From Solirubrobacteraceae bacterium (GTDB lineage: Bacteria > Actinomycetota > Thermoleophilia > Solirubrobacterales > Solirubrobacteraceae): a stretch of DNA of 64,000 bases. Shown here piece by piece: positions 4,833 through 38,050 of this stretch; position 1 is the first letter of the stretch, and each line of letters opens with the position of its first letter. The notes beneath the pieces are model-generated. The model was not told where the DNA came from, made no database searches, and saw only the letters and a list, made by a program, of their open reading frames with translations. The stretch is taken from assembly GCA_030447505.1 (NCBI GenBank), contig JAUJOT010000009.1:37233-101232 (forward strand). The letters are read 5' to 3'. The position numbers and the translations under genes are program-made.

Positions 4833-5149
4833 CCGAGCGGCGCCCAGAGATCTTCGACCAGGCCGCCTTCGCGGACGAGGCCGAGGTGCTCGACGGCGTC
4901 GCGGTTCTCGCTGACGGCGAGGCGCGGCCACTCGCGCCGGCGCGGCCAGCCGGCGCGCTGACGCCGGCCGTCGTGCAGACCGTCGCCGTCGTCGGCGCGA
5001 GCATCGTGGCCGGCGCCGCGACGCTGGCGATGGTCCAGCGGCGCCGGACCCGGCGGCTCGCGCGGCGCCGGCGCCGGATGATCGCGCCGGTGCTCGCGAG
5101 CCGGTCGTTCCTCGTCGAGGTGCACGTCCTCGGCGAGCGCGGCAAGTAG
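4829..5149 (+). CDS. Small single-TM protein, end of the lipid-type operon
   Basis: GTG 4829 overlaps the preceding TGA (GTGA), giving a 106-residue product. The N-terminal 45 residues are acidic and presumably on one side of the membrane, followed by one hydrophobic helix (about residues 46-68), a run of basic residues (RRRTRRLARRRRR) and a C-terminal SFLVEVHVLGERGK. Positive-inside reasoning puts the C-terminus in the cytoplasm. Translational coupling argues that it is a true gene working with the membrane protein. Function unknown. Confidence 0.6.
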   Translation: MTERRPEIFDQAAFADEAEVLDGVAVLADGEARPLAPARPAGALTPAVVQTVAVVGASIVAGAATLAMVQRRRTRRLARRRRRMIAPVLASRSFLVEVHVLGERGK

Positions 5150-35964: not shown

Positions 35965-36390
35965 ATGGGTGCCGAGTTCAGCGGTTCCAAGGAGTTCCGG
36001 ACGGTCATGGACCGCATCTTCACGATGATGAGCGATGACCCCGAGATGGGCCCGAAGCTGCGCGACGCGGACGTGCCGCAGCGCTACGAGTTCGAGGACG
36101 TCGACATGGTCGTCAACATCCGCGCGGCCGATGAGGGCGAGGAGGGATGCCTGTTCTGGCAGTGGAACGACGACATCGACTGGAAGCCGAAGGTCAAGAT
36201 GTCGATGTCCTCGGAGACCGCCAACAAGTACTTCCAGGGCAAGGAGAACGTCGCGGTCGCCATCGCCCGCCGGCGGATCAAGGCCAGCGGCGACGTCAAG
36301 GCCGCGCTCGCCCTGATTCCGATCACCAAGCCCGTCTACGCGCAGTACCGGGCGGTCGTCGAGGCCGAGTATCCGCACCTGAAGGTCTGA
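35965..36390 (+). CDS. SCP2 sterol-carrier-like domain protein
   Basis: 141 residues from ATG 35965 (GAAGGAAGGG about nine bases upstream; ATG 35956 is too close to that site). The chain is FRTVMDRIFTMMSDDPEMG, a VVNIRAADEGEEG strand and a C-terminal IKASGDVKAALALIPITKP, the lipid-cavity helix typical of SCP2-like proteins. These bind acyl chains or sterol-like lipids. No fused enzyme is present. Confidence 0.72.
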   Translation: MGAEFSGSKEFRTVMDRIFTMMSDDPEMGPKLRDADVPQRYEFEDVDMVVNIRAADEGEEGCLFWQWNDDIDWKPKVKMSMSSETANKYFQGKENVAVAIARRRIKASGDVKAALALIPITKPVYAQYRAVVEAEYPHLKV

Positions 36391-36409: not shown

Positions 36410-36438
36410 TTGACAGCGCGTCGTCTGAGGCGTATGTA
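36410..36438 (+). promoter_or_regulatory. Strong sigma-A-type promoter
   Basis: TTGACA (36410-36415), a 17-base spacer and TATGTA (36433-36438). The -35 is consensus, rare in this GC-rich window. Transcription would begin near 36445, 200 bases before the DUF3618 gene. Confidence 0.6.
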
Positions 36439-36444
36439 TGCAGG

Positions 36445-36564
36445 ACCAGGTCGAAAAGTGGGTGGCTCGCCACCCGCGAGGCGCCGCCGGTACGAAGACG
36501 AGCGCCGCCGACCAAGGCAGCGGGCCGCATCGCCCGCAGACGGCGGGGCCACGGTCCCGCCGTC
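36445..36564 (+). ncRNA. Candidate structured leader or small RNA
   Basis: Downstream of the promoter are three successive hairpins: GGGTGG-CTCG-CCACCC (36460-36475, extendable to 36458-36477), GCGGGC-6nt-GCCCGC (36520-36537) and GACGGCGGG-8nt-CCCGCCGTC (36539-36564, perfect 9-bp stem). The last could serve as a terminator, though no T-run follows. No known RNA family is recognised. Confidence 0.35.
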
Positions 36565-36646
36565 GTCGTGATCTGAGCCGTCGCGATCGCGCACTGCGGC
36601 GCAGCGGCGTTTCGCGCGCTTGCCGAGCCGGGTAGGCGACCCTCCA

Positions 36647-36985
36647 ATGAGCGCTTCAGAGCACGACCCGGCACTACCGGCGCAGGAGCACCCCGACGCG
36701 GGGCCGATCCCGAGCGAGCGCGAGCTGCTGCTCGAGCAGATCGAGGAGACGCGCGAGGAGCTCGGTGCGACCGTCGACGCCCTCGCGCACAAGGCCGACA
36801 TCAAGGCGCAGGTGCACGAGAAGGTCGAGGAGCGCAAGGAGCACCTGCACCAGGTGCAGGTCGAGGCGACCGGCAGGCTGCGCGAGACGCTCGATCGGCC
36901 GGCTGTGCCGGCCGCGATCGCCGCCGTCGCGGTGCTGTTGCTGCTGATCAGGCGGCGCCGGCGCCGTCGCGCGGCGACCCGCTAG
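36647..36985 (+). CDS. DUF3618 membrane-anchored protein
   Basis: 112 residues from ATG 36647. The central IEETREELGATVDALAHKADIKAQVHEKV is the DUF3618 pattern, given in two parts: IEETREELGATVDALA, then HKADIKAQ. It ends in a single TM helix (about residues 86-102) and a basic tail RRRRRRRAATR. Such proteins occur across Actinobacteria, often next to holin-X-like proteins, as envelope-associated components; function unproven. Confidence 0.82.
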   Translation: MSASEHDPALPAQEHPDAGPIPSERELLLEQIEETREELGATVDALAHKADIKAQVHEKVEERKEHLHQVQVEATGRLRETLDRPAVPAAIAAVAVLLLLIRRRRRRRAATR

Positions 36986-37036
36986 CACGCGCCCGCAGGT
37001 TCTGCGATCCGCGAGGGGCGACCCTAGACTCGACCC

Positions 37037-38050
37037 ATGGACCTGCTCGAGCGCGTCCGCGCGACCGCTCTGCTGCCTGCCGAGAAGCCCGTCGTCGTGC
37101 TGCTGTCGGGCGGGCGCGACTCGGTCTGCCTGCTCGACGTCGCGGTGCGCCTCGCGGGACCGCAGGCCGTGACCGCGCTGCACGTCAACTACGGCCTGCG
37201 TGACGCCTCCGGCGCCGACGAGTCGTTCTGCCGCGAGCTGTGCGAGCAGCTCGGCGTGAAGCTCGACGTCGAGGCGGCGCAGCGTCCGCAGGACGCGGGC
37301 AACCTGCAGGCCTGGGCGCGCGACGTGCGGCTCGGCGCCGGCGCGCTGCTGGCGCTCGAGCGCGGGGCGCGGCTGGCGACCGGCCACACCGCAAGCGACC
37401 AGGCCGAGACCGTCCTCTACCGGCTGGCCGCGTCGCCCGGACGGCGCGCACTGCTGGGAATGTCAGAGCGCGACGGGCTGCTCGTGCGCCCGTTGCTGCA
37501 GGTCACGCGCGAGGAGACCGCCGCTCACTGCGCGACGCGCGGCCTGGGCTGGCGCGAGGACGCGTCGAACGACGACCTCGCGTATGCGCGAAATCGGACG
37601 CGCGCGCGGCTCATGCCGGCGCTGCGGGAGCTGCATCCGGCGGCCGAGCGCAACGTCGTGCGCACCGCCGAGCTGCTGCGCGAGGAGGCCGCGGTGCTCG
37701 ATGAGGTCGTCGACGCCGCGCTCGCCGGCCGCGACAACATCGCGGTCGCGCACCTCGGCGCGCTGCCGGCGGCGCTTGCTCGGCTTGTCGTGCGGCGTCT
37801 GGCCGAGGACGCGGTGGGCGGGCTGTGCGCGCGCGCAGCGGGTCGGCTCGACGACATCCTGGTCCTCGACGAGGGCGCGCTGGACGTCGGCGACGGCGCG
37901 CGCGCGGTCGTCAGCGGCGGGCTGCTGCGGATCGAGCGGACACCGCCGCGACGTCCGGCGCCCGCGCCCGCCGGCGCGGGCGGGCCGCAGTCGTCGTCGT
38001 CCTATGACGCGCGTGCGCAGCTTCCCGGCGTGCGTCCTGGCGGCTCGTAG
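37037..38050 (+). CDS. tilS: tRNA(Ile)-lysidine synthase
   Basis: 337 residues. The N-type ATP pyrophosphatase loop is seen as LLSGGRDSVCLLD (SGGxDS), followed by ALHVNYGLR, ATGHTASDQAETVLYRL and DASNDDLAYARNRTR, all TilS landmarks. It converts C34 of the AUA-reading tRNA-Ile to lysidine. The C-terminal region is short, as in other actinobacteria. Followed by hpt and ftsH, the conserved tilS-hpt-ftsH order. Confidence 0.95.
   Translation: MDLLERVRATALLPAEKPVVVLLSGGRDSVCLLDVAVRLAGPQAVTALHVNYGLRDASGADESFCRELCEQLGVKLDVEAAQRPQDAGNLQAWARDVRLGAGALLALERGARLATGHTASDQAETVLYRLAASPGRRALLGMSERDGLLVRPLLQVTREETAAHCATRGLGWREDASNDDLAYARNRTRARLMPALRELHPAAERNVVRTAELLREEAAVLDEVVDAALAGRDNIAVAHLGALPAALARLVVRRLAEDAVGGLCARAAGRLDDILVLDEGALDVGDGARAVVSGGLLRIERTPPRRPAPAPAGAGGPQSSSSYDARAQLPGVRPGGS

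What the first reader, a model, noticed from the sequence alone, without database searches (positions are those of the whole stretch)
36410..36646. Strong promoter followed by three hairpins with no gene
A consensus TTGACA-17-TATGTA promoter is followed by three hairpins, the last with a perfect 9-bp stem, in a 200-base stretch before the DUF3618 gene. This may be a small RNA or structured leader controlling the DUF3618 protein. I recognise no known RNA family.
Basis: partly seen in the sequence, partly recalled or inferred. Interest (0 to 1): 0.6.

Follow-up and report, generated by a model that had tools for sequence, protein, structure and literature searches.

The report
New structured small RNA in soil actinobacteria
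Between two ordinary genes lies a gene for a small folded RNA of about 130 bases, not described before as far as we could find, that many related soil bacteria keep with its own start signal and shape even after losing the genes next to it, so it probably does a job of its own that is still unknown.

Summary
Window 36410-36575 is a conserved RNA gene. A promoter (TTGACA-17-TATGTAT) is followed by five helices: P1 closes a three-way junction with P2 and P3, then come hairpin P4 and terminator-like hairpin P5. DNA search finds it in 17 further genomes of the family; a covariance model finds it in 58 of 232 genomes of the order (five more with a broader model) and convincingly nowhere outside. 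Thirteen pairs (17 sequences, structure-blind alignment) and 23 pairs (45 sequences) change on both sides; in a structure-blind alignment the four strongest covarying pairs of 8778 are helix pairs. Rfam has no match; SRP RNA, tmRNA and RNase P RNA lie elsewhere in the genome. The "DUF3618 leader" idea is not supported: DUF3618 is not the usual neighbour, six genomes in four genera (this one included) lost the usual neighbour (a MerR-cyclase gene) but kept the RNA, and in two congeners the next gene is convergent. Best reading: an independently transcribed, structured, trans-acting small RNA with unknown partner; a leader/attenuator is the main rival. Transcription itself is untested. New RNA family of a known kind.

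The parts
36410..36439 (+). Promoter of the RNA: -35 TTGACA (36410-36415), 17-base spacer, -10 TATGTAT (36433-36439)
   Evidence: Sequence; TTGAC kept in 42 of 45 relatives, TTGAC-N18-TA in 27 of 45 vs 0.1% chance
36446..36575 (+). Predicted small RNA (ends inferred: start about 7 nt after the -10, end in the T-richer stretch after P5)
   Evidence: Conservation ends at about P5; z = -4.73
36449..36513 (+). Helix P1: 36449-36454 pairs with 36508-36513, closes a three-way junction
   Evidence: C-G/U-A/U-G changes; 36451-36511 covaries also in the structure-blind alignment
36458..36477 (+). Hairpin P2: 36458-36465 with 36470-36477; contains a U-G pair kept in 41 of 44 sequences; variable length in relatives
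   Evidence: 6 of 8 pairs with changes on both sides; the highest covariation scores
36480..36506 (+). Hairpin P3: 36480-36486 with 36499-36506 (bulged A36501); upper stem P3b present in relatives
   Evidence: Covariation at P3b in the structure-blind alignment; shortened to a short hairpin in distant relatives
36520..36537 (+). Hairpin P4: 36520-36525 with 36532-36537; nearly invariant GCGGGCCG...CCCGC
   Evidence: Two pairs with changes on both sides, rest nearly invariant
36539..36564 (+). Hairpin P5: 36539-36549 with 36554-36564; terminator-like
   Evidence: Compensatory changes; T is 34% in the 6 nt after it against 10-18% further on, over 45 relatives
35965..36390 (+). Upstream neighbour: SCP-2 sterol-transfer family gene (not part of the RNA)
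   Evidence: Pfam PF02036, weak but above cut-off; conserved neighbour
36648..36985 (+). Downstream neighbour: DUF3618 gene (not part of the RNA)
   Evidence: Pfam PF12277; not the usual neighbour in relatives
37025..38050 (+). tilS (37037-38050) with a -10-like TAGACT (37025-37030) 6 nt before its ATG, i.e. probably its own leaderless promoter (not part of the RNA)
   Evidence: Sequence; Pfam PF01171

Best explanation
It is a free-standing small RNA gene. RNA polymerase starts at its own housekeeping-type promoter (about 36446), makes an RNA of about 130 nt, and stops after hairpin P5, an intrinsic-type terminator with a weak T tract. The RNA folds into a three-way junction (P1, P2, P3) plus hairpin P4 and works in trans as a structured RNA. 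Because sequence is most conserved in the junction, the P1-P4 linker and P4 rather than in one open seed, I think protein binding (or structure-dependent regulation) is somewhat more likely than simple base-pairing to mRNAs. Shown: conservation, structure, conserved promoter and terminator-like end, independence from neighbours. Inferred: that it is transcribed, its exact ends, that it acts in trans. Unknown: its partner.
For: DNA hits in the family with the flanks downstream of P5 unaligned. Covariance model hits in 58 of 232 genomes of the order, five more synteny-supported ones with R2. Compensatory changes: 13 pairs on a structure-blind alignment, covariation 0.237 vs 0.140 in shuffles; 23 of 41 pairs with 45 sequences; the top 4 and 8 of the top 10 of 8778 column pairs are model pairs in a structure-blind alignment. 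Promoter conserved and T enrichment just after P5. RNA kept where the usual next gene is lost genome-wide: G000, G005, G006, G112, G198, G145; next gene convergent in G005 and G006. One copy per genome nearly always. tilS has its own -10-like box here and in several relatives.
Against: No transcript data. The terminator's T tract is weak. The RNA always sits in the same SCP2-[RNA]-(cyclase)-tilS-hpt-ftsH neighbourhood, as a leader would. In some genomes the cyclase start codon is only a few bases after P5 (L007, L075, L077), so the cyclase there may depend on read-through. The RNA is absent from many genomes of the order, so it is not essential.
Confidence: 0.72

Rival explanations
1. A cis-acting leader: aptamer-like P1-P4 followed by terminator P5 controls the next gene (ancestrally the MerR-cyclase, or the tilS-hpt-ftsH cluster) by transcription attenuation.
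For: Promoter, structured RNA, terminator and a same-strand gene follow each other in most genomes; the cyclase start codon is within about 5-25 nt of P5 in several.
Against: The cyclase was lost in members of four genera with the RNA intact; the next gene is convergent in G005 and G006; tilS has its own leaderless promoter box; cyclase without the RNA is common; no alternative (antiterminator) pairing among the top covarying pairs.
Confidence: 0.2
2. A leader specific to DUF3618.
For: DUF3618 starts 83 nt after P5 here; no clear promoter of its own was seen.
Against: The RNA is in dozens of genomes where the next gene is not DUF3618.
Confidence: 0.03
3. A short protein-coding gene: a frame reading roughly GR-VGGSP-ARRRR-DERRRP runs through the RNA in many relatives.
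For: The frame is open in several relatives.
Against: It stops early in the congener G006 (L006), in L034 and L047, and shifts in others; 16 of 45 have a P1-P3 interval that differs by a number of bases not divisible by 3; no consistent start codon, and the ATGs overlap the -10 box. High G+C makes open frames common.
Confidence: 0.02
4. A merely G+C-rich terminator region with chance hairpins.
For: G+C about 74%; any such stretch folds.
Against: z = -4.73 and strong covariation in five helices, including P1 and P2, which a terminator does not need.
Confidence: 0.03

Closest known systems
Intergenic small RNAs of bacteria in general (independently transcribed, intrinsic terminator)
   Same: Own promoter, structured body, terminator-like hairpin, intergenic, single copy.
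   Different: No sequence or structure match to any of 4227 Rfam families.
6S RNA (RF00013) and the mycobacterial RNA-polymerase-binding RNA Ms1 (the latter from memory)
   Same: Free-standing structured RNA; no Rfam 6S is detectable in this genome, so an analogue's place may be open.
   Different: Not a single long rod with a central bubble; it is a three-way junction plus two hairpins, about 130 nt.
Transcription-attenuating leaders/riboswitches
   Same: Structured RNA then terminator, often just before a same-strand gene.
   Different: Kept when the downstream gene is lost or convergent.
Small SRP RNA (RF00169)
   Same: Similar size.
   Different: The genome's SRP RNA is elsewhere (G000:C3:256627-256726, 69 bits).

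Membership tests
Independent bacterial small RNA gene | Conserved RNA secondary structure with compensatory changes | tested here: met
Independent bacterial small RNA gene | Own promoter and own terminator | tested here: met
   Sequence level only: conserved promoter, T enrichment after P5
Independent bacterial small RNA gene | Retained independently of neighbouring genes | tested here: met
Independent bacterial small RNA gene | A discrete transcript is made | not testable with these tools
   No RNA-seq available
6S RNA (RF00013) | Match to the family covariance model | tested here: not met
   No match at this locus nor elsewhere in the genome up to E = 10
6S RNA (RF00013) | Rod-like fold with central bubble | tested here: not met
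   Consensus is a three-way junction plus two hairpins
6S RNA (RF00013) | Binds RNA polymerase holoenzyme | not testable with these tools
   Needs biochemistry
cis-regulatory leader / riboswitch | Constant association with a downstream same-strand gene | tested here: not met
   Convergent next gene in G005, G006; cyclase lost in six genomes that keep the RNA
cis-regulatory leader / riboswitch | Conserved alternative pairing (antiterminator or anti-SD) | tested here: inconclusive
   Not among the top covarying pairs; invariant P4/P5 G+C strands could pair otherwise without leaving a trace
SRP RNA, tmRNA, RNase P RNA | Match to the family model at this locus | tested here: not met
   No match here; each is found elsewhere in the genome

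The most novel reading that the evidence does not exclude
An order-specific structured RNA that binds a core machine (for example RNA polymerase, as 6S and Ms1 do, or a ribosomal or RNA-processing factor), with a fold unlike any described regulator RNA.
Probability: 0.15. Interest if true: 0.75.

Novelty: new member of a known kind. Interest (0 to 1): 0.52.

Why it matters
Hardly anything seems to be known about regulatory RNA in Solirubrobacterales, a common but little studied soil order; my literature searches (open-licence papers only) found no RNA work on them. This gives a well-bounded RNA family with a consensus structure and a model that can be searched for and knocked out. Its retention uncoupled from its neighbours says it has a selected role of its own.

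Tried and rejected
Rfam at gathering and at E up to 10: only chance hits. Hidden SRP, tmRNA or RNase P RNA: rejected. Short protein: rejected. P4-loop/linker pseudoknot (ACG with CGU): fits some sequences, is broken in others, and no covariation supports it (and reading the alignment by eye). A marginal hit in another family of the class (G318, L073) has no such promoter and none of the conserved neighbours (SCP2 and cyclase searches negative): taken as false. No convincing member outside the order in a sample of the phylum. The pattern scan of all genomes was too loose; rescoring its loci with the model left only Solirubrobacterales records, one MAG labelled only Actinobacteria (L165, followed by the same kind of HTH/cyclase gene start) and two chance-level hits. 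The regions upstream of tilS in 26 genomes without a hit were searched: no hidden copy scored well. Laying the whole genome in the Python box was not possible.

Full report
Observation. The -35 is perfect; the -10 TATGTAT is weak by the E. coli yardstick, which is why the consensus scan misses it. The stretch 36446-36575 folds better than all 200 dinucleotide shuffles (z = -4.73).

Conservation. A DNA search of 60 relatives gave strong matches in the window's genus (5 of 6 congeners) and in 12 further genomes of the family; they begin in the promoter or in the RNA body and end at about P5, while the 70 bases before DUF3618 do not match (the 17 loci read). A covariance model from 17 sequences (R1) found it in 58 of 232 genomes of the order, one copy each except one fragmentary duplicate. 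A broader model (R2) added five genomes with the right neighbours and nothing convincing outside the order. Named records place it in Solirubrobacterales. Many genomes of the order lack it: upstream of tilS in 26 genomes without a hit no good match remains, and in some the SCP2 and cyclase genes directly abut.

Structure. The consensus is P1 (36449-36454/36508-36513) closing a three-way junction with P2 (36458-36465/36470-36477) and P3 (36480-36486/36499-36506), followed by P4 (36520-36525/36532-36537) and P5 (36539-36549/36554-36564). On a plain MAFFT alignment of 17 sequences, 93.8% of cells pair, 13 pairs change on both sides, and the covariation score is 0.237 against 0.140 in shuffles and at most 0.084 when slid. 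With 45 sequences 23 of 41 pairs do (this alignment was fitted to the model). A new structure-blind alignment of the 45 ranks model pairs first to fourth among 8778 column pairs, with P1, P2, P3b, P4 and P5 all represented in the top 20. A U-G pair in P2 kept in 41 of 44 sequences (A-C on the other strand) fixes the + strand. In the window's own minimum-energy fold P1 is replaced by a pairing of the 5' end with the unconserved tail; the P1 of the family rests on covariation.

Variation. P2 grows by up to about 40 nt in some genera; in distant families P3 shrinks to a short hairpin, and in one of them P2 carries a recurrent GGCGACUGGGG. In one genus (L074, L075, L077) P1-P3 seem replaced by a single hairpin, while P4, P5 and the promoter remain. 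P4 is the most constant sequence.

Signals. TTGAC is found in 42 of 45 relatives just upstream, and TTGAC-N18-TA in 27 against 0.1% per locus by chance; most then have TAnnnnT. T rises to 34% in the six bases after P5 and falls to 10-18% beyond: a weak intrinsic terminator.

Neighbours. The common order is SCP2 - RNA - MerR/class III cyclase - (convergent two-component pair in this genus) - tilS - hpt - ftsH. Here the cyclase and the two-component pair are absent and DUF3618 lies between RNA and tilS. The cyclase ortholog is missing from the whole genome in G000, G005, G006, G112, G198 and G145, in four genera whose other members have it, and all six keep the RNA. In G005 and G006 the next gene is convergent. 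tilS has a -10-like TAGACT 6 nt before its ATG here, and similar boxes in several relatives, so it probably makes its own leaderless mRNA. So the RNA does not depend on any one downstream gene.

Interpretation. The evidence supports a free-standing structured small RNA. Transcription, exact ends and trans action are inferred. I prefer a protein-binding or structure-dependent role because conserved unpaired bases are few and scattered, with no obvious seed; that step is weak. The main rival is a leader/attenuator of the cyclase gene, which fits the tight spacing in some genomes but not the retention after loss.

Known families. No Rfam match. SRP RNA, tmRNA and RNase P RNA are elsewhere. The Rfam 6S model finds nothing in this genome, and the fold is not 6S-like. 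Literature searches found no description, though only open-licence papers are held.

Verdict. A real, new, order-specific RNA family of an ordinary kind; function open.

Noticed in passing
window 37025-37039: tilS has TAGACT six bases before its ATG; similar boxes at 6-7 bases recur before tilS in L014, L064 and L065, suggesting leaderless mRNAs are common in these bacteria.
   Followed up: partly
L132, L133, L134, L135: A MerR-HTH/class III adenylate or guanylate cyclase gene and a convergent LuxR-type response regulator/kinase pair lie between the RNA and tilS in congeners; the cyclase is lost repeatedly across the family.
   Followed up: partly
L074:2950-3110, L075 (minus strand) 4960-5130, L077:1540-1690: One genus has a reduced version of the RNA: P1-P3 replaced by one hairpin, P4, P5 and promoter kept.
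   Followed up: partly
L054, L055, L056, L057, L076, L165 (in the P2 region of the RNA): In one distant family of the order P2 is long and carries a recurrent GGCGACUGGG(G) segment, unexplained.
   Followed up: no
45 relatives, promoter region (window 36433-36439): The -10 of this RNA is mostly TAnnnnT (T at position 7) rather than TAnnnT, at a constant 17-18 base spacing from TTGACN.
   Followed up: no
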